Shown here in pieces: positions 16,669-46,545 of a stretch of 64,000 nucleotides of DNA. The translations under genes were made by a program, and so were the position numbers. Numbering within the stretch: the stretch's first letter is position 1; the number at the start of each line of letters is the position of its first letter. The stretch lies in contig JABAKD010000016.1 in NCBI GenBank assembly GCA_012845835.1, forward strand, positions 23,482,573 to 23,546,572, written 5' to 3'. A model generated the notes under the pieces. It was not told the DNA's origin, searched no databases, and saw nothing but the letters and a program-made list of their open reading frames with translations. The stretch comes from Undaria pinnatifida. Taxonomy: Eukaryota; Sar; Phaeophyceae; Laminariales; Alariaceae.

Positions 16669-17163
16669 TTACTGTGAGTTCTCCCTCACAATTGACACGG
16701 TGGTTACCATACAGCAGTAGCGAAACCTGTATAAAGAGATATAAAGTAGTAACACAACCCAAGCAAAAGTAACGATGTGCACACAACAGACCATATCGGC
16801 AACAAACATCGGTATAAGCACGCGGGGAAAAATACTGGACACAGAAAACAAACAACAAATTGACACCAATGATTCCTCTAACAAACAGCAGCGACAGCAG
16901 TACAAACCCATCAGACAGCGAAAATGATCAAGACAACAACAGCGGCAACAATAACAATTCTGGTCAATGGTCCATTATTCCCGAGATTGGTGATGGTGCA
17001 TGTTTATTAAGATGTATCTCGCGTCGTGTGCACAACAACCCAGCTTTACATCACATCGTCCGTGCACATATTATTGCCCACATCACAACCAATTTGTACA
17101 CCGTTATCCCAGGATCAGGTTTCAACACTTTCCACGACAGCATCTTAGCTGGAGCAAATCAAG
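16669..17163 (+). repeat. Upstream copy of the OTU gene duplication
   Basis: This 495-bp block is repeated at 17320-17810 with only scattered changes and a 4-bp insertion. It contains the promoter region, start codon and first ~130 codons of the OTU protease gene. It ends at GGAGCAAATCAAG, after which the two copies have unrelated sequence. The tandem arrangement (offset 651 bp) points to a local duplication. Confidence 0.92.
16730..16735 (+). promoter_or_regulatory. TATA-like box, truncated OTU copy
   Basis: TATAAA lies 45 bp before the original ATG (16775) of the truncated OTU copy, inside the duplicated block. The same spacing is found in the intact copy. It is a sequence match only, without proof of use. 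Confidence 0.4.
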
Positions 17164-17216
17164 GTCATGTAGATAATAAAGAATCATTTGTCGGTGTAGA
17201 CAATATATTTTTCTGA
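16775..17216 (+). pseudogene. Truncated OTU cysteine protease copy
   Basis: This copy has the same start and N-terminus as the intact gene, but a 4-bp insertion (AAAC, about 16881-16886) shifts the frame within the Ser/Asn-rich linker. A second ATG at 16869 opens the OTU frame again and reaches a stop at 17214-17216. That frame keeps the Asp and Cys of the catalytic triad (GDGACLLRCIS) but ends after AGANQ with an unrelated tail of about 17 residues, so it lacks the catalytic His. It cannot be an active protease. It could still make a short protein with part of the fold, but decay is the simpler reading. Confidence 0.85.
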
Positions 17217-17319
17217 ACGGAACAAACAACGCCAACGTGCCCGAAAAAGTTCAGTTTGTCTTGCAAAGTTCCGTCAGCAGCACCACCAGCAAGCAGCACG
17301 TAGTCCATAGACTCTAAGT

Positions 17320-17810
17320 TTACTGTGAGTTCTCCCTCACAATTGACACGGTGGTTACCATACAGCAGTCGCGAAACCTGTATAAAGAGATATAAAGTAG
17401 CAACACAACTCAAGCAAAAGTAACGATGTGCACACAACAGACCATATCGGCAACAAACATCGGTATAAGCGCGCGGGGAAAAATACTGGACACAGAAAAC
17501 ACACAACAAATTGACACCAATGATTTCTCTAACAGCAGCGACAGCAGTACAAACCCATCAGACAGCGAAAATGATCAAGACAACAACAGCGGCAACAATA
17601 ACAATTCTGGTCAATGGTCCATTATTCCCGAGATTGGTGATGGTGCATGTTTATTAAGATGTATCTCGCGTCGTGTGCACAACAACCCAGCTTTACATCA
17701 CATCGTCCGTGCACATATTATTGCCCACATCACAACCAATTTGTACACCGTTATCCAAGGATCAGGTTTCAACACTTTCCACGACAGCATCTTAGCTGGA
17801 GCAAATCAAG
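17320..17810 (+). repeat. Downstream copy of the OTU gene duplication
   Basis: Second member of the tandem duplication with 16669-17163. It is the copy in which the open frame continues past the duplicated block into a full OTU domain, so it is probably the source copy. The 156 bp between the two copies have no recognisable gene. Confidence 0.92.
17381..17386 (+). promoter_or_regulatory. TATA-like box upstream of the OTU gene
   Basis: TATAAA starts 45 bp before the ATG at 17426, with a second TATAAA ten bases on. The surrounding AT-rich leader is shared with the truncated copy, so both would have inherited the same promoter. Confidence 0.4.
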
Positions 17811-18277: not shown

Positions 18278-18693
18278 GTCACACTTGACTGGTGGCTCGC
18301 TGCGCGAGAAGGCACTTGACGATCGTCGGGAGTGGCGGAATGTTTTACAATATTTGACTGCGCGAGAAGTAACTTGGCGATCGTCGGGAGTGGCGGAATG
18401 TTTTACAACATTTGACTGCGCGAGAAGGCACTTGGCGATCGTCGGGAGTGGCTGAAAGATTTTTCACACTGGAATGCGCGAGAAGGCACTTGGCGATCGT
18501 CGGGAGTGGCTGAATGATTGTTCACACTAGACTGCGCTAGAAGGCACTTGGCGATCGTCGGGAGTGGCTGAATGTTTTTTCACACTGGACTGCGCGAGAA
18601 GGCACTTGGCGATCGTCGGGAGTGGCGGAATGTTTTGTCGTACTTGACTGCGCGAGAAGGCACTTGGCGATGGTCGGGAGTGGCGGAGTGTTT
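18278..18693 (+). repeat. 58-bp minisatellite, seven units
   Basis: Units repeat with a strict 58-bp period: GCGCGAGAAGGCACTTGGCG, then ATCGTCGGGAGTGGC and a T-rich tail ending in CACTGGACT or TACTTGACT. The block CGCGAGAAG starts at 18303, 18361 and 18419 and continues at the same step to about 18651. The period is not a multiple of three, so it is unlikely to encode a repeated peptide. It begins about 200 bp after the OTU stop codon. Confidence 0.9.
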
Positions 18694-18939
18694 GGTCGGC
18701 GACTTTCGCTTTGAGGCGGAGAATGTCACCGATAGGTTGCTCGTACTTAGTCCCCTGTAAAGGGAACAGCAGAATTTGGCTAGGAAGGCCGCATGGTGTG
18801 ATGGCAAAGTGCGCATGGGTTACGTTGTACGCAGGTAACCTGGTGTAGGATGTAACGTGCTGAAAGACACGAACACTTTTTACAGGACGCACAGCCGTAG
18901 CTGGAGACGCAGTCTAGACTACATGCATAAGAGATGATG

Positions 18940-22129: not shown

Positions 22130-23560
22130 ACCGCAAGGGCAGGATCGAACAGCAGAGGCGCAAACGTTCCAGCGTAACGCCGAAGAGCGCGGTGTATCCG
22201 ACGAGGGATAGCAAAAGAGGGTGTGCGGTGTGCGCTGCGAGGGTGTTTGCGTGCCAGGTTGTAGTTCGTAGCGCCGTTTGATTTGAATCGCAGCCGTTTG
22301 AATTTTATGGTTTTGTAAGAACGAGGAGGGTTTCTTGGGAAGGCATTATTTTTTCCGCAGCCCAGGGCACAACGAAGTGAAATGTTTTTGGTGTGTGTTG
22401 TGTTCGTTGTCCTAAATGCCCCGCACGAGCAGGATCGAACAGCAGAGGCGCAAACCTTCGAGCGCATTCACCACCAGCGCTGGGTTTGCAGGGCAGCCGA
22501 ACGGTGCTTGGATGCTACTACTAGCAGTGTAGTGTGTGTTGGTGTTGGTGTGTGTGTCCCAGAATGAAGCACCAGCTGGTTGTTTGCGTGCCAGGGTGTA
22601 GTTCGTCGCGCCGTTTCATTGGAATCGCAGCCGTTTGAATTTCATGGTTTTGTAATGACGAGGAGGGTTTTTTGGGAAGGGGCTTTTTTTCCGCAGCCCA
22701 GGGCACAACGAAGTGAAATGTTTTTGCTGTGTGTTGTGCTGGTTGTCCCGCACGAGCAGGATCGCACAGCAGAGGCGCAAACGTTCCAGCGCATGCACCA
22801 CCAGCGCTGGGTTTGCAGGGCAGCCGAACGGTGCTTGGATGCTACTACTAGCAGTGTAGTGTGTGTTGGTGTTGGTGTGTGTGTCCCAAAATGCACCCAC
22901 GAGCTGATTGTTTGCGTGCCAGGGTGTAGTTCGTCGCGCCGTTTGATTGGAATCGCAGCCGTTTGAATTCATGGTTTTGTAAGGACGAGGAGGGTTTTTT
23001 GTGAAGGGGCTTTTTTTCCGCAGTCCAGGGCACAACGAAGTGAAATGTTTTTGCTGTGTGTTGTGTTGGTTGTCCCGCTCGAGCAGGATCGATCAGCAGA
23101 GGCGCAAACGTTCCAGCGCACGCACCACCAGCGCTGGGTTGGCAGGGCAGCCGAAGGGTGCTTGTATGCTACTACTAGCAGTGTAGTGTGTGTTGGTGTT
23201 GGTGTGTGTGTCCCAAAATGCACCACCAGCACTGGGTTGGCAGGGCAGCCGAACTGTACTTGGATGGCAGCCGCACGGTGCTTGGATGGTACTAGCAGTG
23301 TAGTGTGTGTTGGTGTTGGTGTGTGTGTGCTGGGTTGGCAGGAGAGCCGAACGGTGCTTGGATGCTAGTAGCAGTGTCGGGTTCCCCAGGCCTGACACAG
23401 TGTGCGTTGGAAGGACCCGCAACAGTGTCCGTATGAAATATATTAAGTAGTGTGTGTTGGTGTTGGTGTATGTGCTGGGTTGGCAGGGCAGCCGAACGGT
23501 GCTTGGATGCTAGTAGCGGTGTCGGGGGGGGGGCGCCCGACACAGTGTGCGTTAGAAGGA
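22130..23560 (+). repeat. ~330-bp satellite-like tandem array
   Basis: About three full units and several shortened ones. Landmarks recur in order: GTGTAGTTCGTCGCGCCGTT, GGAATCGCAGCCGTTTGAAT, CATGGTTTTGTAA, AGGAGGGTTTTTT, CCGCAGCCCAGGGCACAACG, GAAGTGAAATGTTTTTG, GCACGAGCAGGATCG, CAGCGCTGGGTTTGCAGGGC and GTGTAGTGTGTGTTGGTGTT. The block GTAGTTCGT occurs near 22260, 22597 and 22925. After 23215 only the last third of the unit repeats, at steps of about 100-150 bp. Open frames over it are by-products of the array. Confidence 0.9.
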
Positions 23561-28659: not shown

Positions 28660-31600
28660 AGTAATCAGACGGCCATATACATGGTCCACATTTACAGCGT
28701 TTTCGTTCATGCAAAGCAAGAACGACATCTCGACGATTTTGAAGGTATGGAGCCCCGTCATCGAGGACACTTTTTTGTACTAAAAGTACTTACTCTATTG
28801 TACACACGACTCGCATAGAGGCACAGCGTGGAAAATACACGGACAAGATACGGCTGGTGCCAGCGGAATGCAGCTCCGATCACCGCAGTCAAACCTGCCG
28901 CTTAAGGTGCCGCTCATGATTGAATTGAGTGCTGCTGTACAGCCAGAAATCGCCGGCTGTTGAAAGCATTTATTATGCCGTGTGGCCAGCATCTGCACTT
29001 TACCTAACTTATATCTGGTCGCTCAGAATACCGGTTCCCTTGTAGAAGCAGGGTATGGTCGCGTAGTTTTGAGGTCACCCACGCAGCCATTTTTTACAGC
29101 TGAGGCGCCGTCTCCACCTTAGCTTCGGGGGTGCATCGACAATGTGCGTCCTGCCGACCGTTTACTCGTTTTGGAGTCAGGGATGTTTCCTTGTGTATTT
29201 GCCCCGTTTGCACGGCCTACTTGTGCCCCCCCCCTCCCCACCTCACATCACTGTGGTCTATTCGTGGTCGAATCACTTTCAAGTTTTATTCTAAGGTTCA
29301 GGTTTTCTTCGTTTACATGGGCCCTAACCGGCGCGTTTCGTGCACGGTGGGTGCGGGTGTCGGGTGTGCTTTCGTTATGGCAGAATCAGCGCCCTCCAGG
29401 ACATCACCAATAAGCATCGAATACTCGACTCAGGATGGTCCGGTTGACTAAAATGCTTACGGCGTCGTTGGCGGTATCCTTCAGGATCTCCGTGAATGGT
29501 GAGCAGAAATGTCCAAGTCGTCTTTTGTTTGCTGTATCATCTTAGAAATAGATGTATAGTAAGTATGAATGCTACGTGAGAAGGTTCGCAATACCGCGTG
29601 GATAGAACAAAAAGTCGCGTTCTGCCACTCCTCCGTGCCGAGGACGTCAAACATACGCATTGAAACAAACACACCGATACCACAAAAAGGAGATCGCCAT
29701 GCTGGCGGACGTAGTCTTTTCGCGGTGTTTCGAGGTGTGTACTGACCAACCGATCCCCCGAACGAAGAAGCGACGATAAAATGTTTTATCCAGATGCGCA
29801 CAAGATATCATTCTTTGGTTGACTCAATTTCCCCCACACGTCCACGTGGGCACCTGTCTTCCTGTCCCTGATCCAGGTCTCAACGAGTGTCTTACATCAT
29901 GCACCCCTGCAACAGAAGAAGCGTGAGTGAGATCGTTCCGTGCGTCTTCCCCGGGAAGTGATGCACAAATCAGATGGAATTCAACTAGCGCCATTATTAA
30001 CATTTCCCCAAGTAACCTACCCGCATTGTCTTTGAGGGGAGACCCTTGGCAGAACGGTAGGCACCTTACCAGATTATAATGTACACTGTAGGTTCAACTT
30101 TTCTGTTGGTGAATTTTTTCAACACACACTGTGCTGTAGTTTCAGGTATGTAAATCTTACCGGAGCTGTGCTCACAAGGCAAACGTACTGGGACTCCCAC
30201 GGGTGCAGCGTCGACGCGTACCGAGGATTACTCGAGGGGGGTGTTCTTCTTGTTTGAATATCTAGTAGCATTTGAATGCTCTCCCGTGCGAAAGCTACAG
30301 CACGAAGGCTACGGTATTCCCAGCTCCGCAAAAGGCCACGTAGAGGTATATTCCAGCCTCGTCGACATTCATTACGTCCCTCCTTGTTGCGTCACAATTC
30401 AGGGTTTTCGGCAACTGCGGGCTTACAGACGATGACTTCCCCGACCTCAGCACGTGCTTGGACGATATGGGACGAGACGGCCTCACTATCATGTATGTTT
30501 CCCTGTTGTTCGAGGACGGGCAAGAAAAATATGTCGTTATCACTGTGACGTGACGCGTTCGCGTCGAAGGCAACGCCAACCACCACTCTTAGCTATGCGA
30601 TGCCAGTAAGCCTGTCCAAAAACGTGTAACTGAAGAGAGTGCTAAAAATTGGAGGCGGCGGGGTGCACGATAGGGGCCGATGACCATTTTCTGAAGATGC
30701 CCCCCTGAAGACCTCCATACCGATCTGTCGAGGTCCATTTTGAAACCCAAACCAAACAGTAGAAAAAATTGGAACCTTTCCCCCCAATGAACAATCCCAG
30801 CTGCAGGTCTTCAACATCAAATGGCAACGTAAACCCTCTTGCTACATTCGCCTGAGATCGTTGCGTTTCAACATTCAAACTGCTCGCTAAATGTCTCCTA
30901 GCTGTTTCTCCGTTTGACGACAATTGGTGTGGCCCCAAACGTGACTTAGATTCATGTTGTTGAGGTTGGTAATAAGACAGGGGTTTGTCACGTCTTGCGT
31001 CTGGCCAATTGACGCCGCCGTCATGGGTACAGAACATCGTCAGTAGCGGCGGGCGCGGCAGTATGTCCATACCTCGTGTTCGGAATACCATTATTCTTTT
31101 TTCAGCGCGGGAACAATAGTTGGGTCTCAAGTCTGGGTGTAAGGCAATTTTAGCGTAGCTGTGGGATCTCTTACTTTTTTTCATTGTGAAGCATGGTTAA
31201 CGGAATCAGACAGCAACAACAACGGTCCGTGGTGGCATTCGATGGCGAATTAGGCATGTATTTTGACGGTTAAAAGCCTCCAAAGTGTTGGCGACATAAA
31301 TACGATGAAAGTGCGGCCTGCAGTCACCCAATGGTGTCGGTCGCGCAAGTGTGTTCGTGATCGCAAATACGCCTAACCCCATTTAAAGCCGACAGCGTTG
31401 ACGAACTACCTCTCGTGTTTACGTGTCACTGGGGCGATTCTTCTTCCCCCTCTTTGACGCCACCCCTCGCGCTGGATCTGACATGATTCTTGCCATCCTG
31501 CAGACGACTGAATAGAAACGAGTTTACAACGATACCCGCCGATCTTTTCGGGCCTATGGACGCCCTGACGAGTTTGCGGGTGTCGCTTCTGGTCCCCCGC
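28660..31600. other. No supported gene
   Basis: No tandem array, inverted ends or recognisable domain was found. The longest frame is 180 codons on the minus strand (30642-31184), with a Lys/Arg-rich start and no known motif. It was not called. Confidence 0.4.
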
Positions 31601-32488: not shown

Positions 32489-33483
32489 AGGTCGACGGCG
32501 GCAGCCTATAGTGCACCGCCAACGCTATACCCCCCGGGCTTTTGCTTCCGATACCAGTGTAAACCCCCCGCGTTCCGCCCCACTAAGAATATCTCTCTGA
32601 CAGGTAGATGTCACACGAAGGGAATATCCCCCCACTCGCTTCGAAGACAGATGTTAAAAGCTAACCCGAATACGGAAGGTTCCGTCCCTATTGGCGTTAC
32701 TGTCCAACACCGCTGTCAACAGGCAGTCCGGTCAAACACGCGACAGTCTGCACCGAATCAAACACAACGCACAAGGTTGGGTTGTGTGCAGCATGGATTA
32801 TAATTTAAGCCCACTTTTGTTGGTCCATCAACCGTGTAACAAAGAAAAAACGCCCTTCAAAGTCAATGTCAATACATAATGCTCGGTGGCCGGTCTGTCC
32901 TATGGTAGTGACCGCTCCTGCCTAAGCCCTAAATTTTGAACGATTTGTATTCCATCATGACATACCCAAATGGAGAAACTAGTTCTCGCACAAACGCGGG
33001 ACATGGATCTTCGGCGTACCACTGACCCACGCTAATGAACTGTCACCGACGACACCATAATGCTTGCTTACGTTTACCAATGTTGACCCGCCTACATTTT
33101 TACCCTCCCGCCGCCACGGCTTCCGCCACGCATATAAGGTACCTTAATAACAACGTCATGACAACCCTTCCATCGAACGTCTTCGCCGGCCTGGGGGCTC
33201 TGACCCATCTGTGAGTATATTTGGAATAGCTACCCATGAAAGTTGGTACACGCTCTCTTCACTTCTACTCTACCGTTTGCACGGCGCGAAATGACAGGCA
33301 ACATTACACAGACAGACCGTGGTTGAACCACACGTTGGCCTCTGGAGTAGTTCAGGGTGAACGGTCGATGATTCTACACGGAGAGCAAAGACGGAGAAAC
33401 CCCGCGCCTTGTCGACTACTCCAGGAGGTTAAAGCATGGTTTAAGGAACTATATACCAGCAGGATTTAATAGGTTGAGGTGGC
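32489..33483 (+). repeat. LRR cassette A1 (exon plus introns)
   Basis: About 1 kb holding one LRR exon. Shared landmarks with A2 and A4 are GACGGCGGCAGCC near the start, GCTTCCGATACCA, CTGACAGGTAG, GAAGGGAATATCC, TTGGGTTGTGTG, GCACAAACGCGGGACATGGA, CTGTCACCGACGACACCATA, the LRR exon, GTTGGTACACGCTCTCTTCA and the closing GAGGTGGCAC. Introns are as conserved as the exon, which indicates recent duplication of the whole unit. Confidence 0.88.
33139..33210 (+). CDS. LRR exon A1, 24 residues
   Basis: A 72-nt exon between an AAG acceptor and a GTGAGT donor, phase 2 on both sides. It reads YLNNNVMTTLPSNVFAGLGA then LTHL, one complete LRR of the YLxxNxLxxLPxxVFxxLxxLxxL type. The reading frame stays open when joined to the other LRR exons. 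It differs from the other A exons mainly in codons 3 to 9. Confidence 0.85.
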
Positions 33484-36400
33484 ACTTGATTACTACGACG
33501 GCGGCAGCCTATATTGTACCGCCAACGCTGAAGCCGCCGGGCTTTCGCTTCCGATACCAATGTGAACCCCCCGCGATCCCCCTCACTTAGAAATTTTCTT
33601 TGACAGGTAGCTGCTACACGAAGGGAACACTCCCCCACCCGCCTCGATGACAGATCCCAAGGGCTAACCCGAATACGGAAAGTTCCGTGTCCAAGCGTGG
33701 TGCTGTCCAAAACAGCTGTCAACTGGCAGCACGTTCAAACACGCGACAGTCCGCACCGAATCAAAACCAACGCACAAGGTTGGGTTGTGTGTAGCATGGA
33801 TACTAATTTAAGCTCGCTTGTGTTAGTCCATCAATAGTGTAACACAGCGACAACGCCCTGCAGGAACAATGTCACGAAATAATGCTCTGTCGCCGATCTG
33901 TCCTATATAGTGACCGCTCCTTCTTTAGCCCTGTATTTTATATGTTCAGCTTTCGATCATCGCTTACCCAAATGTGAAAATTACTGCTCGCACAAACACG
34001 GGACTTGGATCTTCGGCGTACCACTGACCCGCGTTAATAAACTGTCACCGACGACACCATAATAATTGTTTACAAATGTTGACCCGGTTACATTGTTACA
34101 CTCCCGCCGCCACGGCTTCCGCCGCCTACATAAGGTACCTTGGTGGCAACAACCTGGCATCCCTTCCATCGAACGTCTTCGCCGATCTAGGAGCTCTGAG
34201 CTCTGACCCATCTGTGAGTGTATTTGGAAGCTACCCTTGAAAGTTGGTACACGCTCTCTTCACTTCTACTCTACCGTTTCCAAGGCGCGAAATGACCGGC
34301 AACATTACACAGACAGACCGTGGTTGAACCACGCGCTGGCCTCTGGTGTAGTTCAGGCTGAACGGTCGATGATTCTAACCGGAGAAAAAAGACGGAGAAA
34401 CCCGGCGCCTTGTCGAATACTCCGAGTTGTTAGAGCAGGGCTCACGAAGTTTTGTTCCAGTAGGTCTTGAAAGGTTGAGGTGGCACTGGAGCACCAACAG
34501 ACACTTGTTGACATACAGGAGGTAACAGAATCTACCATACAAATATATCCCTGCGTGGGAGGCGTGTCATTTGACGGCGGGTGACCGTGTCATGTCACCC
34601 AGAATACTTTGCTTTAGTTTCTGCGATGCCCACGGTTGGGCCGATTCTGGCCTGCGTAAAGCTGCGGGATAGCATCGTTGCTGCTGCCACACTGTCGAAC
34701 GCCCTGAAACAGTTTCAGCCGAGGGTACCGAGTCCTACCATCAACGAGACCACCAGGTTGAAACCAAAATCGTCTCCGGTTTGGTGGAGTGGTACGACTG
34801 ACTCCGTCGTGCGGTAGGGAATGCCTTCTTCTTGTTCATTGTGCTAGGAATGGGAATCCATAAAAGGCACAAGTCTAAGCATGAAACACTTACCGAACAC
34901 GAATGCAACATTTTGCATTGTAATTTTAGTACCTAGAGAATCCCGCACAGATATATGTACCCCTGCTGTGTATGAAATCTACTCTTTTCCGATGCCGCCG
35001 TAAAACTGTGTCAGGTACCTGCAAGCTAACAATATTCCCAGCCTGCCCGTGGACGCCTTCACTGGCTTATCGTCTGTGGAACTATTGTGAGTGCCGTAGA
35101 TACCACCCCGACCCTGTATACCGGTCTAAACCAAAAGAATGATCATGTCCAAATTGTTAATGCAGCCTTTGTTAGATGCTTTGCCGTTCGAGAGCAAACG
35201 GCTTTCACATCGGGATTTGATACATATACGGATTTGACGCGTGCTACGACAGAAAGGTAGGGCTTTTCGTCTGAAATGGTTTCTGGATGGTGGTGCTCAA
35301 AATCGTCGGAAACAGGTCGCGTTCTTGCCTGACGGTTGTGGTGCACCTAGGCAATGGGATTTTGCATCAGGTAGCAGTTGTAATTTTCCCCAAATATGTC
35401 TTTGGGAGGGGTCTTCTTCGCCCAATTTCGTTGGACCTCAGAAAGCAAGCGGTGCCCCTCTGTCGTAGTACGCGTCATTTGCACTACAACTACTCACAGG
35501 TGACAGTTAGATGTGTCCATAGTCCATGGGCCCATATACCCTGGGGTGCATGGCCGGGTGCGTCGTGCCTGTAAGGGCACAGGGAGTACATGATGTTCAT
35601 TGATTGCAAGCACACGATGCAGGTGTAGGCAGTCCAAAACGATTGAGGTTCGACATACCACACCCATATGCAGTACGAAAATACTCCCTTTGAAACACCA
35701 ACGACGAAAGAAACGCCTACACTACGGTTAAACGTGTGGATTGTCGGCCGCCTGCCAAGGTAAGCCAATAGAACGAGGTGGTCACCCGTAGAGAGTTAGA
35801 TTCGAATATTTGTTGGTAATATTTGCGGGGAAGATGTTGTGCTGAGTGCCAACAAAAGCATTTGATGGTTCCCCCTATGACACAAATCAACGTCATTTCA
35901 AATATCATTGTGGAGGAAAGTGTACGGTACGAGGGGCGTAGGAAAACTACTGCTCGCACAAACACGGGGCATGGATCTTCGGCGCACCACTGACCCGCGT
36001 TAATATACTGTCACCGACGACACCATGATACCTGCTTACTGTTGTTGACCCGTTTACGTTTTCACCCTCCCTTCGACGCCACATCCGTAAGAAACATTGG
36101 TGGGAACAACCTGGTAACCCTTCCTTCGAACGTCTTCGCCGATCTGGGAACTCTGACCCATCTGTGAGTACATCGGGAAGATACCCTTGAAACGTTGGTA
36201 CACCCTCTCTTCACTTCCACTCTACCGTTTCCAAGGCGCAAAATAACGGGTAAGTTACACAGACAGGCCGTGGTTGGACCACACGTCGGCCTCTGGAGTA
36301 GTTTGGGCTAAACAGTCGATGATTCTAAACGGTGAAAAATGACGGAGAAACCCCGCGCCCTGCCGATTACTCCAATCGGTTAGAGCAGGGTCAACCAAAT

Positions 36401-39400
36401 TACATGCCAGCAGGTTTTGAAAGGTTGAGGTGGCACTTCAGGACCACGATGGCGGCAGCTTACAGTGCATCGCCAACGCTAAAACCGCCGGTTTTTCGAA
36501 TCCGATACCACTCTGAACCCACCGTCTTCCCCCCCACTTGGAAATTCTCTCTGACAGGTAGCTGCTACATGAAGGGAATATCCCCCCACCCGCCTCGATG
36601 ACAGATGCCAAATCTAACCCGAACACGGAAGGTTTCGTGCCCATGGGCGTTGCCGTCCAACACAGCTGCCAAATGGCGGTCCGATCAAACACGAACCAGT
36701 CCGCACCGAATCAAACGAAACTCAAAAGGCTCGGTTGTGTGCAGCATGGATTCTAATTTAAGCCCACTTTTGTTGGTCCACCTCCCGTGTAACACAGCGA
36801 AAACGCCCTGCAAAGGCAATGTCACTACATATTTCTCGGTAGCCGATCTGTCCTATGGTAGTGACGGCTCCTGCTTCGGCCCTTTACTTTAGTCTATATG
36901 TTTAGCATTCGATCACCAACTACCCACATGTGGAAACTACTGCTCGCACAAACGCGGGACATGGATGTTGAGCGTACCACTAACCCATCATAATAAACTG
37001 TCACCGACGACACCATAACAATTGTTCAACGATTGTTGATCTGCCACATTTTTACCCTCCCGCCGCCACGGCTTCCGCCACGTCCATAAGGTACATTCAT
37101 TATGACAACCTGGTAACCCTTCCATCGAACGTCTTCGCCGATCTGGGAGCTCTGACACATCTGTGAGTACATCGGGAAGCTACCCTAGAGAGTTGGTACA
37201 CGCTCTCTTCACTTCCAATCTACCGTTTCCAAGGCGCGAAATGACCGGCACACTACACAGGCAGACCGTGGTTGATCCACAAGTTGGCCTCTGGAGAGAA
37301 TATATGAAGAAATCCGACGCCTTGTATATTACTCCAAGAGGTTAGAGCAGGGTTCACGATTTTTTGAACCGGGTAGGTTTTGAAAGGCTGAGGTGACACC
37401 GGAGTACCAACTAACACTTGTTGACATGGAGGAGCTAACAAAATCTACCACACAAATAAATCCATGCGGGGGAGGTGTGCAGTATGACGGCGGTGACCGT
37501 ATCATATCCCCCAAATTGATTTGTTTTGGTTTCTGCGATACCCACCGTTCGACGATGCTGGCCTGAATACAGCTGCGGGATAGCATCGTTGCTGTTGCGC
37601 CGCTGTCGAACGTCCCGAGACAGTTTCGGCCGGGGGTACCAAGTGCTAGCATCAACGAGACGGCTAGTTGGAGGCAAAATCGTGTCCGGTTTGGCGGAGT
37701 GGTACGACTGCACTCCGTCGTGCAGCAGGGTATGCCTTCTTCTTGTCCATTTTGCTAGTAATGGGCATCGGTACAGGGCACCCTTCGAAGACTAAGCACG
37801 GGACACCCACCGAACGCGAATCCAATATTTTGCATTGAAATTGTCATCGTAGTACCTAGAGACTACCGCACAGATACCCCTGCTGCTGTATGAAATATTC
37901 TGGTTTCTGATGCCGCCGTGAAACTATGTCAGGTACCTGCAATTTAACCAAATTTCCAGCCTGCCCGTGGACGCCTTCACCGGCTTATTGTCTGTGGAAG
38001 AAGTGTGAGTGCCGAAGATACCACCCCGACCCTATATACCAATCTAAACCAAAAAAATGATCATCTCCTAGTTTTTGATGCAACATTTCTTGGATGCTCC
38101 GCCGTTCGAGAGCAAACGGCCCTCACATTGGTATTTGATACATATTTCATGTACCGATTTGACGCGTGCTACGACAGAGGTAGCACGTTTCGTCTGAAAC
38201 GTTTTCTGTATGGTGGTGTTCCTTGTCGCAAAATCGTCGGAAACAGGTCGCCTTTTTGCCTGATTGTTGTGGTGCACCTAGGCGATGGGGTTTTTCGTCC
38301 GATAGCAGTTGTAGTTTTCTCCAAAACCGTTTTTGGGAGAGGTCTTATGCTCCCAATTTTGTTGGACCTCAGAAAGCAAGCGGTGCCCCTCTGTCGTAGC
38401 ACGCGTCGTTTGCACTACAACTACTCACAGCAACGGTTAGATGTATCCATACTCAATAGGCCAGTATACCCTAGTGTGCATGGCCAGTTGCGTCGTGCCT
38501 GTAAAGGGCACCGGGAGTACATGATGTTCATCGCTTACAAGCACACAATGCATGTGTAGGCACTCCAACACGATTGGCACTTTTACATGCCGTACCAACA
38601 TACTCCCCTTGAAATGCCAACGATGAAAGAAACGCCTTCACTACGGTGAACCGTTTGGATTGGCGGCCCCTTGCCAAAGTAGGCCAATGGAACGCGGTGG
38701 CCGCTTGTAGAGTTAGATACGAGTATTTGCTGCTGTAATAGCGGGCCAGATATATATGTCGCTGCGTGCCGTATACGCCTTCGATGGCTCCCCCTATGGG
38801 ATAAATCGGCTTCATTTCAAATCACATTGTGGGGGGGAGTCTACGGTATGATGGGCGTAGGAATATCGAGCTATTTTGAGTATTCCGATAGTTCAATTCG
38901 GGTAAAAAAAAATATTGAGAATGTCCCCTGTATCAGAGGCCACGCGTAGACGGTATATTTCTGCGCTGAAAATTTCACTTGTGTTCCCTTTTTTTTCACT
39001 CCGAGTCGACAGGAATCTGAATTCCAACTCTCTGACGACGCTTCCTGAAGGTGTATTCGAGAACTTGGGGTCTGACGGAAGCTTGAGGCAGCTGTGAGTG
39101 CCTCTTAGTCGTGTCACAAATTGATCTTACTGACTCAAGTGTAGGAAGCGAAACCACGCAAAACGTGGCTACGTATCATTACGCCCTCTCACGTGGTCGC
39201 TGTTCACCTGACATTTTGCGGACGATCCAGACGCCAAAGGTTTGGCAGCACGACGTAGTCCAACGGCTGCACATGGCATGCCGATCAGGAACACCGCCAC
39301 TGTTGCTGCCTCAGGCGAGCACGGTCGGGCCAACCGTTTGTCTTCGCTGGTCAATCACATCGCGTTAGCGTGTTTATATCCACCCGTTTCGTCAACCCAT

Positions 39401-42393
39401 GTCTACCTTTCTTTGCTGTTGCACAAACCTTCTGTGTCTTCATTCAGGTTCTTGACTGAAAACTCGGGCCTGCAATGCGTCCCCTCCGCGTAAGTGATGT
39501 GGGTAGGGGATGGAAAATCATTGGTTGGTATTCATATGCGTGTATGGGTTGTATTCGCCTGCGGCCCCTGGCTTGGCCTCGTTGGCAAGCAATTGTACAT
39601 TGCTGTAAATGAATCGGAGAGATGGATGCGTGACGGGGTTGTTCATCACTCGCTCTGATAATGCGCTAGACTATATATGGTATTATTTTCTTCTTTATAC
39701 AATATGGTGTCAACTCCGATTATGACGGGAATGGCCAATCGTGCATGCACAGCGCTGGCTCGTGTAAAGACTAGTTTTCCCTTCCGACGATCTGCCCTGA
39801 ACCCAAACCTGTACTCGCATCGTCGACCCCTGTTTTGAGCCGGTTTGGCAAACGCAGAACCTTCTCCGACGCCTCCACCTCAGCTGACGCTCCACAGGTG
39901 GACGCCTCTGACGTGTGCGGTAAGAATCGGCGGAGTCCAAGTTGAATTGTGGACCTCTTTCCGCAAACGTCGGGGGCGAAGAACTCCTACCACTGTTGTC
40001 AACGGCATGTCGTTATCAACGGAAACTATTATGGGCGTTGCGATAGAATGATCAAGGGCCGCAGTGGTTCCCTCTTTCGGAGCATTTACGAACCCCACAT
40101 TGTACTCAGATAATCCATTGTTAGGGTAATTTCGCGACGTAGGCTGATGTTCTTAGTTTTGCATACGGTTTGATCTATGTCAACGACGTACCTGAAAATT
40201 GAGCCTAATCTTGCCCAATAAATGTCTGCCCTTTCGTTACCTCTGTTCTCTGCCGCCCACGCCTCTGTTCTCTGCCGCACACGCGAATCGGCAAACAGAA
40301 TGTACCCCACTCACCGCGGTTACGTGTGCAGATGGTCAAACTTGTGTGCCTGGAGCCGACGGTTACACTTGCAGTGGTAAGTTTCTTATGGAACTATATA
40401 ATCTATTTTACACCTCACTAATGCCGTGAGCGTGTAGCAACTGGTGTTCTCTTCTCTACGGTACTCCAGTAGGCGAAACCATGGGCAATACGTCCGGCAA
40501 ACATGACGAAGGGTAGGGAAGGCAGGAAGAAAGGGAGGCCAGAAGAAGGAAAAATGCACCTCCACCGAACGCCCAACCGTGTAATGATCGGCGTCAACCT
40601 AGACACAACGTGCCATGCGCCTTCTATGATTGTTCACGTCTCGCGACCGATACTCGTGTATGGGACATGTCGGGAATGTTACAACTACAAGCACCAGGGC
40701 ATTTGAGTAGTCTACCGTTGTCCTGAACTGTTTAAGTGCTTTTGCACATGAGCCTGCCGTATGGCGTCTGGGCTTCGTTCGAGGCAGAAGCCGCTTGCGG
40801 AATGCCCCTAGAAGAAGCCAGTCGCAACGTCCTCGGTTTTTCGTCAGCAAGAAATATGCTAGAAATATTTCAAGCCCGCCTTTATATAGCCCAGAATCAA
40901 CAGCATCAACGATCGACTCTCTCCGTTGAAATCATTACCTTGTTCCCTGGATGGACAGAGATGTGGCTTCACGCCTACAATGGCGAAAACGCAAATGTTG
41001 CCATTAGCAATACTAAGTTGATCCTACGGGACGTTCGGCAAGCATCAAATATTTTTCAGGACCCATGATACGAGAGGGGTGGCGGCTGCATTTTGTGAGG
41101 GCCCTAACTGAGGGACCTCTATACTCCACCCTGAGGAAGATACAGAGAAAGTAATGAAATTAAGCCGGAGGAAAATTCTTAAAGCAGCTGACGAAAGCAA
41201 CTTTGAAACGCGAATCGTGTTGAGACGGTATTAGGCACTTCCCAACGGTCAAGTAGCACGGAAACCCTTAATATGTTGGCCCAAACAGCGGTAATCCGAT
41301 CGTACTGCATGCCACGCTGTCCCTACGACGACGCAACTGTGTCCGCAAAGAGTGCCAGTGAAAGTTTTCCTGCAGTTCAACCCTTCGTAGATGAGTCAAA
41401 CCATGGTTTTATGTACATCACCCGCATCATCCGCCGTGACATCCCGCCGCTTATTCAAACTATGCAGTTTGCGACCCAGGGACAAGCATGTGTGGTGACC
41501 CACACATGCAAGGCTTCCGCGGCCAGCAGATTGACTGGTCCGGTGTCGACAACAACTGGTACTGCATCGTCTCCGATGACACCGACAGCATCAGCGTCAA
41601 CGTCCGGCTCAACGCTCCTCTACCCGCGGAGTTTCCAGACCGCCAGCTCATTACCGGCCTTAGCGTCATGTCACAGGGTCATTCGCTCGTTATCGAGGTG
41701 ATAAACCCGTACGATGTCAACACTGCCGGCTGCCCCCCCAGCATGTCCACCTGCCTTTCCAACGGTGGACTCCGCGCTGTTGTCGACGGCGAGGAGGTAG
41801 ACAGCCTTCTTCGTTTCTCCAAAGACGAGTATGTGACGGACGGCATTGCTATGTCCGCGTCCAATCTACCTGTGGAGTGTCGGCAGTTCGGAGGGGACAA
41901 AATATGGGCTCGCATGTACGACGAGATGCTGCACGGCAACCGCGAATTGGCCGTGGAGGAAACGTTCGAGGACTGGATTCTACGTTTCGACCACATGGCC
42001 GCCCCCGACTGGTGCACGCAATACATCGCACAGAAAGACCTCGCCGATGTGCAGTCCATCTACTCGGTCTTCAAGATAATGACTTCCTCTGTCACGGTGC
42101 GCCTCCACGTCGGCACAAACTTCCAAGGCAATGGGGACGTTAACTGGGATGGTCGTGTCCTCCCCGACTTGGAGTTCTGGCAGATGGACGTAGGTTTTGA
42201 AGGTCTGTCTGTGGACAACGAGTCGCTCACCGGCATTCTGGGTGAGACGGCCCGCCCGGTTCAGGACAAGGATGGACATAAAATAATGCAGGGGCATAGG
42301 GCGATCCGTGGAACTGTCGAGGACTACCGCGTGTCAAGCCCCCTCGGCACCGACTTTGCGCTCAAAACCAAGAAAATGGACAACTCCCCCTGA
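33139..42393 (+). CDS. Split gene: LRR - EGF-like - vWD protein (putative surface receptor)
   Basis: Exons at 33139, 34135, 35015, 36092, 37091, 37933, 39013, 39448, 39858, 40299 and about 41468 share strand, and their splice phases fit: phase 2 between all LRR exons and the cap, then phase 1 into the EGF-like and vWD exons. The product would have seven LRRs, an LRR C-terminal cap, a short Ser/Ala/Asp linker, a Cys-rich EGF-like module and a vWD domain ending at a TGA. Such modules act outside the cell in ligand binding and adhesion, so a secreted or cell-wall role is inferred. The first exon is not secured. One LRR exon (34135) carries a 7-bp duplication that breaks the frame if it is spliced in, so the gene is either a pseudogene, skips that exon, or this allele is damaged. 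In brown algae, single-LRR exons are known from candidate immune receptors; this one has different partner domains. Confidence 0.7.
33484..34487 (+). repeat. LRR cassette A2 (exon plus introns)
   Basis: It follows A1 directly and repeats all its landmarks in the same order, with the LRR exon about 1 kb after the exon of A1. The closing GAGGTGGCAC is followed here by the start of cassette B1 instead of another A. Differences from A1 include small indels in the introns and the 7-bp duplication in the exon. Confidence 0.88.
34135..34213 (+). pseudogene. LRR exon A2 with 7-bp frame-breaking duplication
   Basis: The exon starts YLGGNNLASLPSNVFADLGA like the other A exons, but GAGCTCT is present twice (about 34191-34204), giving 79 nt instead of 72. 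Splicing at the normal GTGAGT donor would shift the frame of all following exons. The duplication may be a recent slippage event, a sequencing error, or a sign that this exon is skipped. Confidence 0.8.
34488..35942 (+). repeat. LRR cassette B1 (exon plus introns)
   Basis: Matches B2 (about 37401-38862) through its length: CACTTGTTGACAT, GGGATAGCATCGTTGCTG, GGTACCGAGTCCTACCATCA or a variant, the LRR exon, AAAATCGTCGGAAACAGGTC, GGACCTCAGAAAGCAAGCGG, GCCCCTCTGTCGTAG, GGGAGTACATGATGTTCAT and CATTGTGG near the end. It is unrelated to A outside the exon. Confidence 0.85.
35015..35086 (+). CDS. LRR exon B1, 24 residues
   Basis: A CAG acceptor, 72 nt and a GTGAGT donor, phase 2 on both sides. It reads YLQANNIPSLPVDAFTGLSS then VELL. 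The second half (PVDAFTGL) differs clearly from A exons (PSNVFADL), so B is a distinct LRR type. Confidence 0.85.
35945..36436 (+). repeat. LRR cassette A3, 5'-truncated
   Basis: It begins mid-cassette at ACTACTGCTCGCACAAACAC, directly after the end of B1, then follows A to GAGGTGGCAC. The first ~480 bp of a normal A unit are missing. The junction marks the start of the second A-B block, so the truncation shows where the duplication was joined. Confidence 0.82.
36092..36163 (+). CDS. LRR exon A3, 24 residues
   Basis: 72 nt, reading NIGGNNLVTLPSNVFADLGT then LTHL, with a GTGAGT donor. The acceptor is GTAAG followed by A instead of G, and the first full codon is Asn instead of Tyr, both differing from the other A exons. 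Confidence 0.8.
36437..37400 (+). repeat. LRR cassette A4 (exon plus introns)
   Basis: A complete A unit starting CAGGACCACGATGGCGGCAG and containing the LRR exon at 37091. About 70 bp are missing after the exon compared with A1 and A2 (in the segment following GTTGATCCACAAGTTGGCCT). It is followed by B2. Confidence 0.85.
37091..37162 (+). CDS. LRR exon A4, 24 residues
   Basis: 72 nt, AAG acceptor and GTGAGT donor. It reads YIHYDNLVTLPSNVFADLGA then LTHL. Residues 2-5 (IHYD) differ from A2 and A3 (LGGN, IGGN), while the last two-thirds are unchanged. Confidence 0.85.
37401..38862 (+). repeat. LRR cassette B2 (exon plus introns)
   Basis: The second copy of B, nearly co-linear with B1. It includes the exon at 37933 and ends near GGGCGTAGGAATATCGAGC. 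It differs by scattered substitutions and small indels. After it comes unique sequence leading to the last LRR exon. Confidence 0.85.
37933..38004 (+). CDS. LRR exon B2, 24 residues
   Basis: CAG acceptor, 72 nt, GTGAGT donor. It reads YLQFNQISSLPVDAFTGLLS then VEEV. Residues 4-8 (FNQIS) differ from B1 (ANNIP) while PVDAFTGL is unchanged. Confidence 0.85.
39013..39093 (+). CDS. Last LRR exon, 27 residues
   Basis: ACAG acceptor, 81 nt, GTGAGT donor, phase 2. It reads NLNSNSLTTLPEGVFENLGS then DGSLRQL. It is three residues longer than the other LRR exons and lies outside the A and B cassettes, so it is the non-duplicated terminal LRR. Confidence 0.85.
39448..39489 (+). CDS. LRR C-terminal cap exon, 14 residues
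   Basis: A 42-nt exon between CATTCAG and GTAAGT, reading FLTENSGLQCVPSA across the split codon. The N-x-G-L-x-C form closes LRR arrays in many extracellular LRR proteins. Phase 2 on both sides fits the LRR exons before it. Confidence 0.75.
39858..39919 (+). CDS. Linker exon, Ser/Ala/Asp-rich
   Basis: A 62-nt exon between ACGCAG and GTAAGA. It reads TFSDASTSADAPQVDASDVC and changes the splice phase from 2 to 1, which is what the following exon needs. The phase fit is the main evidence for it. The closing Cys is the first of the Cys-rich module. Confidence 0.65.
40299..40376 (+). CDS. EGF-like Cys-rich exon
   Basis: A 78-nt exon between AAACAG and GTAAGT, phase 1 on both sides. With the preceding exon it reads DVCECTPLTAVTCADGQTC then VPGADGYTCS. 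The spacing of the Cys residues and the GQTC and GYTC blocks fit an EGF-like module, which would be stabilised by disulfides outside the cell. Confidence 0.75.
41468..42393 (+). CDS. von Willebrand factor D-like domain, terminal exon
   Basis: The exon opens at about 41468 (acceptor ATGCAG, phase 1; 41480 is an alternative in the same phase) and ends at the TGA 42391-42393. It gives about 308 residues beginning near TSMCGDPHMQGFRGQQIDWS. GDPHM is the signature start of vWD domains. The later block LTGILGETARP near the end resembles the G-L-C-G type closing region of the family. Between them the protein has scattered Cys residues and acidic stretches. vWD domains occur in secreted, adhesive or matrix proteins. 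This is the longest clear coding stretch in the window, and it is open without interruption. Confidence 0.85.
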
Positions 42394-45339: not shown

Positions 45340-46144
45340 ACCGTTAGTGTCCTTGGGCTAGAGACTACTGCACTATCCAATAATACACACGACGTTGCAG
45401 CCGATCTAGTAGGCCACAAGTTGGAAAAACTGACATTTTGGCAGGTACCATATCGTGCGACGCCACCGTATCAATCATCTTGACACTTCCGATATCCGCC
45501 ATTGTACCTGGGAAAGTTGGAACGGTCTCATAAGGGTCGGGCGTCTCTGGTCCGGATACGGCAGTTGCGAGTTTATCGTTCTCGCTGTATCTAGTGCTTT
45601 CTGCAAGGCCACCTGGACGAAATCACCTCGGTCACGCTTCCCGTCGGTAGCAGTATCCGCAAAGTTCTCCGCACTAGCTCTTGGATTTACGGACTGAACT
45701 CGGGGTGCATCAAGCACCCTATCTACGTTCGTCGCCGGCACCGACCTAAGCAGCAATGGGCAGTCCTGGGTGCCGATGCATTTCTGGTGGAGCATGAGAA
45801 CGAACATATCATGCCAGCCGTGCTATAGGGTGTCGCGGAGGTAACTGAATGACAATGGAGGTTCGTACAGTCTGGTTGACCCTGCTCTTGATGTCGCCGA
45901 CCAAATATTCCGTATGCGTGGTCTTATTTGCGTGCTATTTGTTGTGTGCCTCCCTGAGCTGGTCCCGTTAGACAAAGGTATATTCAAGGGTTGTTCCGCC
46001 CGTGTTCGTGGTGCGGCCATCGTCTACATTTCCACGTTGGGCGCCTTGTGCGTTGATTCCGTCTTCTATCCCAAGTGCTATTTCTGTGGTAGGCAGGCAT
46101 ACCGCGAGACCTCTTGCACTGCCGTGTCCAGCACTTGCCCGTGA

Positions 46145-46545
46145 ATCATTCCTTCTTCGTCATGGACCTCCTTGTTGAGGTGGACGCCTTCAACGAAATA
46201 CTACGGCATGACAGGATGTTCCATGAGACGCGATATCATGGAATATCAGGGTGAATTCTTGAGGTGTATGCCACGATGCAATACATTCTTCGGCGCGATG
46301 TACTCCACGTCAAGGAGAGCATTTCAGCACTCGCCCGTGACTTATTTCATCATTCCTTCTTCGTCATGGACCTCCTTGTTGTGGTGGACGCCTTCAACGA
46401 AATACTACGGCATGACAGGATGTTTCATGAGACGCGATATCATGGAATATCAGGGTGAACTCTTTAGGTGTATGCCACGATGCAATACATTTTTCGGCGC
46501 GATGTACTCCACGTCAAGGAGAGCATTTCAAACCGCATGTGTTCC
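46145..46545 (+). repeat. 204-bp tandem duplication, two units
   Basis: ATCATTCCTTCTTCGTCATG starts at 46145 and again at 46349. The two units then agree almost base for base through GGTGGACGCCTTCAACGAAA, ATGAGACGCGATATCATGGA, ATGCCACGATGCAATACATT and GTACTCCACGTCAAGGAGAG. The period is 68 codons, so any frame is kept. One frame reads HHSFFVMDLLVVVDAFNEIL and another reads MRRDIMEYQGELFRCMPRC. Neither matches a family that could be recognised, and the true coding frame, if any, is uncertain. Confidence 0.85.

What the first reader, a model, noticed from the sequence alone, without database searches (positions are those of the whole stretch)
32489..38862. LRR exon cassettes duplicated with their introns in an A-A-B-a-A-B order
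Six LRR exons sit in two cassette types of about 1 and 1.45 kb. Not only exons but entire introns are nearly identical between copies, and the last A before the second block is cut at its 5' end exactly after B1. This records how the array grew: tandem A duplication, then duplication of an A-B block. A genomic architecture that adds, removes and swaps single LRRs without breaking the frame (all phase 2, 72 nt) could rapidly change what the protein binds.
Basis: partly seen in the sequence, partly recalled or inferred. Interest (0 to 1): 0.9.

Follow-up and report, generated by a model that had tools for sequence, protein, structure and literature searches.

The report
Duplicated LRR exon cassettes, brown alga
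A brown-alga gene for a probably secreted leucine-rich-repeat protein grew by copying whole exon-plus-intron cassettes twice in a row, a way of lengthening such proteins that is already known in brown algae, seen here in a gene family for which we found no report of it.

Summary
The A-A-B-a-A-B order is real. A ~1.0 kb segment holding one LRR exon (A) was duplicated in tandem; then a 2.97 kb block (3' part of A1, all of A2 and B1; 32976-35943) was duplicated directly downstream (35944-38863). The A|A junction lies inside both blocks, so the A duplication came first. Two details of the finding are wrong. The copies are well diverged, not nearly identical (82.7% at aligned positions), with introns about as diverged as exons. 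Only five of the six exons are 72 nt; A2 is 79 nt, and including it puts a stop in B1. Leaving A2 out gives one open frame. No ROCO domain was found. The gene seems to encode a secreted LRR-EGF-like protein ending in the brown-algal 'Imm upregulated 3' domain, whose low-confidence model resembles von Willebrand type D domains. Two proteins of this architecture labelled Undpi1 have 2 and 3 internal LRRs where this gene has 6 exons. Arrays of 72-bp, phase-2 LRR exons are published for brown-algal ROCO genes, with other carriers mentioned, so this is a new member of a known kind. Rapid change of binding is plausible but not shown.

The parts
29435..29498 (+). probable first coding exon (MVRLTKMLTASLAVSFRISVN..), signal-peptide-like; tentative, because its phase does not join 30403 directly and no linking exon was found
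   Evidence: resembles the N-terminus of P0134, 15 of 21 residues by eye; boundaries placed by eye
30403..30492 (+). LRR N-terminal-cap-like exon (..CGLTDDDFPDLSTCLDDMGRDGLTI)
   Evidence: similar stretch in P0134 and P0121; 'cap' label is mine from the Cys pattern
31504..31575 (+). LRR exon E0, 72 nt phase 2 if a GC donor (TT|GCGGGT) is used; a 78-nt version with a GT donor also keeps the frame
   Evidence: matches the first LRR of P0004
32493..33495 (+). cassette A1 (intron + exon 33139-33210 + intron)
33139..33210 (+). LRR exon A1, 72 nt, phase 2
33496..34490 (+). cassette A2
34135..34213 (+). LRR exon A2, 79 nt: 7-nt tandem duplication, frame-breaking if included
34491..35943 (+). cassette B1 (exon 35015-35086)
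35015..35086 (+). LRR exon B1, 72 nt, phase 2
32976..35943 (+). first copy of the duplicated a-A-B block
35944..38863 (+). second copy of the a-A-B block
36092..36163 (+). LRR exon A3 ('a'), 72 nt, phase 2; whole exon, shortened 5' intron part
37091..37162 (+). LRR exon A4, 72 nt, phase 2
37933..38004 (+). LRR exon B2, 72 nt, phase 2
39013..39093 (+). last LRR exon, 81 nt, phase 2
39448..39919 (+). LRR C-terminal-cap-like exons 39448-39489 (..GLQCVPSA) and 39858-39919, with the intron between them
   Evidence: compare P0004
40299..40376 (+). small Cys-rich, EGF-like exon
   Evidence: EGF label is mine from the Cys pattern, not a Pfam hit
41468..42393 (+). last exon: Imm upregulated 3 (IMU3) domain, vWD-like model, ends in TGA at 42391-42393

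Best explanation
This is the repeat region of a brown-algal gene, probably from a kelp, for a probably secreted protein: LRR N-cap, LRR solenoid, LRR C-cap, a small EGF-like module and an IMU3 (vWD-like) domain. Each duplicated LRR is one exon, 72 nt and phase 2 in five of six, inside its own long introns. Shown by sequence: a ~1.0 kb A cassette was tandemly duplicated; then a 2.97 kb block whose left end lay inside A1's 5' intron, holding the end of A1, all of A2 and B1, was tandemly duplicated. By the gene model all breakpoints lie in introns, so each step adds whole LRRs in frame. Inferred: unequal exchange or replication slippage made the duplications; the copies then drifted apart at about the intron rate, except that the structural half of the A exon stayed constrained while the beta-strand/surface half changed freely or under diversifying selection. 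A2 gained a 7-nt duplication; because the neighbouring cassettes are symmetric, skipping it keeps the protein in frame. The likely product is a longer LRR horseshoe presenting an altered surface outside the cell, anchored or oligomerised through the vWD-like domain. The ligand (microbial, cell-wall or developmental) is unknown.
Confidence: 0.8

Rival explanations
1. The array belongs to a decaying gene or pseudogene: duplicated, then neutral, with exons open by chance.
For: A2 frameshift; non-canonical E0 donor; exon divergence about equal to intron divergence; rough neutral simulation P(at least 5 of 6 intact)=0.05-0.23; an exon linking the signal peptide not found.
Against: The last exon keeps 307 codons open at 92-93% protein identity to P0001; the cap and EGF-like exons splice in frame; the donors of all six duplicated exons read GTGAGT (simulated chance 0.03-0.07); conservation is concentrated in the structural half of the A exon.
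Confidence: 0.2
2. The cassettes are a splicing repertoire: A and B exons are alternatively included, as reported for ROCO genes, so one gene makes several LRR surfaces.
For: Symmetric 72-nt phase-2 exons; A2 fits the frame only if skipped; alternative splicing of LRR exons is reported for Ectocarpus ROCO genes (PMC11378527, section 11 read).
Against: No RNA data here; no signal for mutually exclusive splicing was looked for; skipping a frameshifted exon is equally expected of plain damage.
Confidence: 0.25
3. The exons were shuffled in from brown-algal ROCO genes or from the LRR-only reservoir that Teng et al. propose.
For: Same exon length (72) and phase (2) as ROCO LRR exons.
Against: By the paper's text the ROCO exon holds the whole segment LxxLxxLxxLxLxxNxL, whereas here the exon junction falls inside that segment (between LxxLxxL and xLxxNxL), so the register seems to differ; A exons do resemble LRRs of the family's own relatives P0134 and P0004. 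No ROCO sequence was compared.
Confidence: 0.1
4. Assembly artefact: one A and one B repeated by misassembly.
For: Only that the duplicates are tandem.
Against: 17-20% divergence with 132 gap columns across 2.9 kb, and precise unit ends.
Confidence: 0.01

Closest known systems
Brown-algal LRR-ROCO genes with shuffled LRR exons (Teng et al. 2024, PMC11378527, following Zambounis et al. 2012)
   Same: One LRR per exon, 72 bp, phase 2; tandem arrays; extra repeats in frame; positively selected residues reported on the concave face.
   Different: Host gene here is a probably secreted LRR-EGF-IMU3 gene with no ROC or COR domain seen; exon register in the LRR seems to differ by the paper's description; duplicated introns and breakpoints are readable here.
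Non-ROCO shuffling-LRR-exon sequences of Saccharina japonica (15 mentioned in PMC11378527, passage)
   Same: 72-bp LRR exons outside ROCO genes in a kelp; a relative of this gene could be in that set.
   Different: The paper says most contain only LRR motifs; here the LRRs are joined to caps, an EGF-like module and IMU3.
Imm upregulated 3 family (brown-algal)
   Same: The last exon is a clear member: 46-93% identity to the 25 others aligned.
   Different: LRR Pfam labels are on 2 of the 120 listed (of 259) hits; many hits are short ORFs of DNA contigs that cannot show upstream exons, so the true share is unknown.
Tetrahymena 90-bp phase-2 LRR exon arrays (PMC6564038, passages)
   Same: Symmetric phase-2 LRR exons duplicated with their introns; unequal crossing-over proposed.
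   Different: 90 bp, over a thousand genes in most species, retroelement association; a ciliate.
Jawless-vertebrate variable lymphocyte receptors
   Same: LRR proteins; a VLR-A chain is the second PDB sequence match (2o6q, E=2.7e-42).
   Different: General LRR resemblance only (306 PDB sequences match at E<=1e-3); no sign of somatic assembly here.

Membership tests
72-bp phase-2 LRR exon arrays of brown algae | LRR exons of exactly 72 bp | tested here: met
   5 of the 6 duplicated exons are 72 nt, A2 is 79 nt; E0 is 72 nt with a GC donor; the last LRR exon is 81 nt
72-bp phase-2 LRR exon arrays of brown algae | flanking introns phase 2 | tested here: met
   the joined exons stay open with phase 2 across the LRR exons, A2 excepted
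72-bp phase-2 LRR exon arrays of brown algae | alternative splicing of the LRR exons | not testable with these tools
   no RNA available
LRR-ROCO proteins | ROC-COR GTPase domains C-terminal of the LRRs | tested here: not met
   no ROC or COR match at E<=0.05 in + strand genomic frames 30-49 kb (introns weaken such a scan) nor at E<=0.1 in the joined protein; cap, EGF-like and IMU3 exons and a stop follow instead
Imm upregulated 3 family | conserved ~300-aa domain | tested here: met
   includes P0094 named imm upregulated 3
vWD domain proteins | vWD fold | tested here: inconclusive
vWD domain proteins | Pfam vWD sequence profile match | tested here: inconclusive
   none listed for 26 members at E<=1; HMMER filters drop weak matches
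Secreted protein | signal peptide | tested here: inconclusive
   candidate exon 29435-29498 resembles the N-terminus of P0134, but no exon joining it to 30403 was found; no signal-peptide predictor was run

The most novel reading that the evidence does not exclude
Secreted kelp LRR-vWD proteins carry a modular, splice- and duplication-tunable ligand-binding array: germline cassette gain and loss plus exon skipping give each strain a different set of extracellular recognition surfaces, separate from the ROCO repertoire.
Probability: 0.12. Interest if true: 0.7.

Novelty: new member of a known kind. Interest (0 to 1): 0.4.

Why it matters
It extends the one-LRR-per-72-nt-exon architecture, published mainly for brown-algal ROCO genes, to a probably extracellular LRR-IMU3 gene, and it keeps the two duplication steps readable in the introns. 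If strains differ in cassette number, it would be a handle on how seaweeds vary extracellular recognition. It also suggests what the poorly understood IMU3 domain may be: a vWD-like module.

Tried and rejected
Rfam (gathering thresholds) and tRNA scans of the window: nothing. Scans of genome contigs and viral contigs for the IMU3 exon, and tblastn against phages: no relative. These collections hold bacterial, archaeal and viral records, so this says little; its effect is that no DNA of a relative could be compared and no orthologous introns were seen. Four-taxon site counts to order the A copies: unresolved, 8:6:6; the order rests on the shared A|A junction instead. Neutral simulation of exon survival: only weakly against neutrality. 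Single-window tests of exon conservation: unconvincing. Considered and rejected: a ROCO gene; assembly artefact. A structure model of P0134 is confident only in the LRR part (pLDDT about 87-96 by tens over residues 41-150; whole model 58.7). A loose regular-expression count of LRRs in relatives gave 5 for P0134 and 4 for P0004, overlapping or missing units, so the internal counts of 2 and 3 are by eye. Papers: PMC11378527 seen as section 11 plus passages; PMC6564038 and PMC4421812 as passages; other papers as search listings only; Zambounis et al. 2012 not seen (known through PMC11378527). No paper in the library holds both 'imm upregulated' and 'leucine-rich repeat' or 'von Willebrand'.

Full report
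What is there. The window carries a + strand gene model with long introns. Self-comparison shows two nested tandem duplications at 32.5-38.9 kb: A1/A2 (offset 1003 nt, 82.2%) and a block 32976-35943 repeated at once as 35944-38863. Aligned globally, the two block copies agree at 2379 of 2878 positions (82.7%) with 132 gap columns. This gives exons A1, A2, B1 | A3, A4, B2.

Order of events. The A1|A2 junction (33495/33496) and the A3|A4 junction (36446/36447) lie in one ungapped stretch of the block alignment, so the junction existed before the block was copied. The A tandem came first, the a-A-B block second. Distances do not separate the two events in time: K2P is 0.143-0.214 for A1-A2, 0.154-0.190 for B1-B2 and 0.137-0.321 for the other A pairs, across introns and exons, and the four A copies give 8, 6 and 6 informative sites for the three possible splits. 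At this divergence neither duplication is recent (inference; no clock was applied).

Introns are 74-87% identical, not nearly identical. Exon A2 is 79 nt, by a 7-nt tandem duplication; when it is included, translation stops four codons into B1, and when it is left out the frame runs open from the N-cap exon to the stop at 42391-42393. The upstream exon E0 is also 72 nt if its intron starts with GC. The last LRR exon is 81 nt.

Is the array kept by selection? Mixed. On average exons diverge as fast as introns. A rough neutral simulation leaves at least 5 of 6 exons intact in 5-23% of runs, depending on the rates I chose; all six donors staying GTGAGT has probability 0.03-0.07. Within the A exon, the first 28 nt vary at 15 of 28 columns, the last 44 at 7 of 44, and introns at 125 of 385; Fisher P is 0.037 and 0.025 against introns and 0.0013 between the halves, but the split was chosen after looking. 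No intron window of 72 columns (0 of 243) shows such a contrast, though single windows as variable or as conserved as either half do occur (49 of 331; 34 of 299). In the model of P0134 each LRR has a short strand where, by comparison with this window, an exon would start, so the variable codons are the strand and the turn after it, the usual ligand side of LRRs (general knowledge).

Compared with what is known. Teng et al. 2024 (PMC11378527; section 11 and passages seen) report 72-bp phase-2 exons, one per LRR, in brown-algal ROCO genes, alternative splicing of them in Ectocarpus, and 15 further S. japonica sequences with such exons. Tetrahymena has 90-bp phase-2 LRR exon arrays (PMC6564038, passages). 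The Saccharina genome paper describes Imm upregulated genes as brown-algae-specific and counts them among expanded families (PMC4421812, passages). The architecture and its proposed use are thus published; no paper in the library holds both 'imm upregulated' and 'leucine-rich repeat'.

Verdict. The structure is real and its history readable; it is a new member of a known kind. The host gene and the tentative vWD-like reading of IMU3 are the fresh parts. Rapid change of binding is possible but unproven, and decay of the gene remains a live rival.

Noticed in passing
41468-42393: The IMU3 domain, without a Pfam match, is modelled (low confidence) like von Willebrand type D domains of mucins, VWF and FCGBP; no paper in the library joins the two terms.
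   Followed up: partly
P0240, P0246 (relatives): IMU3-domain proteins carry other partners by their Pfam labels: WSC in P0240, ankyrin repeats in P0246.
   Followed up: no
P0121, P0249, P0252 (relatives): Pylaiella, Scytosiphon and Hapterophycus proteins seem to repeat a whole N-cap-LRR-C-cap-EGF-like module two or three times, without the IMU3 motif, a larger-scale duplication in the same protein type.
   Followed up: no
P0055 (relative): An IMU3 protein is labelled as a Hyphomicrobiales bacterium MAG; most likely algal DNA in a bacterial bin (inference).
   Followed up: no
18300-18698; 16669-17810; 22241-23224; 46129-46530: Other direct repeats in the window: a 58-nt array, a 98% identical ~490-nt pair, an overlapping 93% pair and a 93% tandem pair.
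   Followed up: no
31504-31575: LRR exon E0 has GC in place of GT at the 72-nt donor; a 78-nt alternative with GT also keeps the frame.
   Followed up: partly
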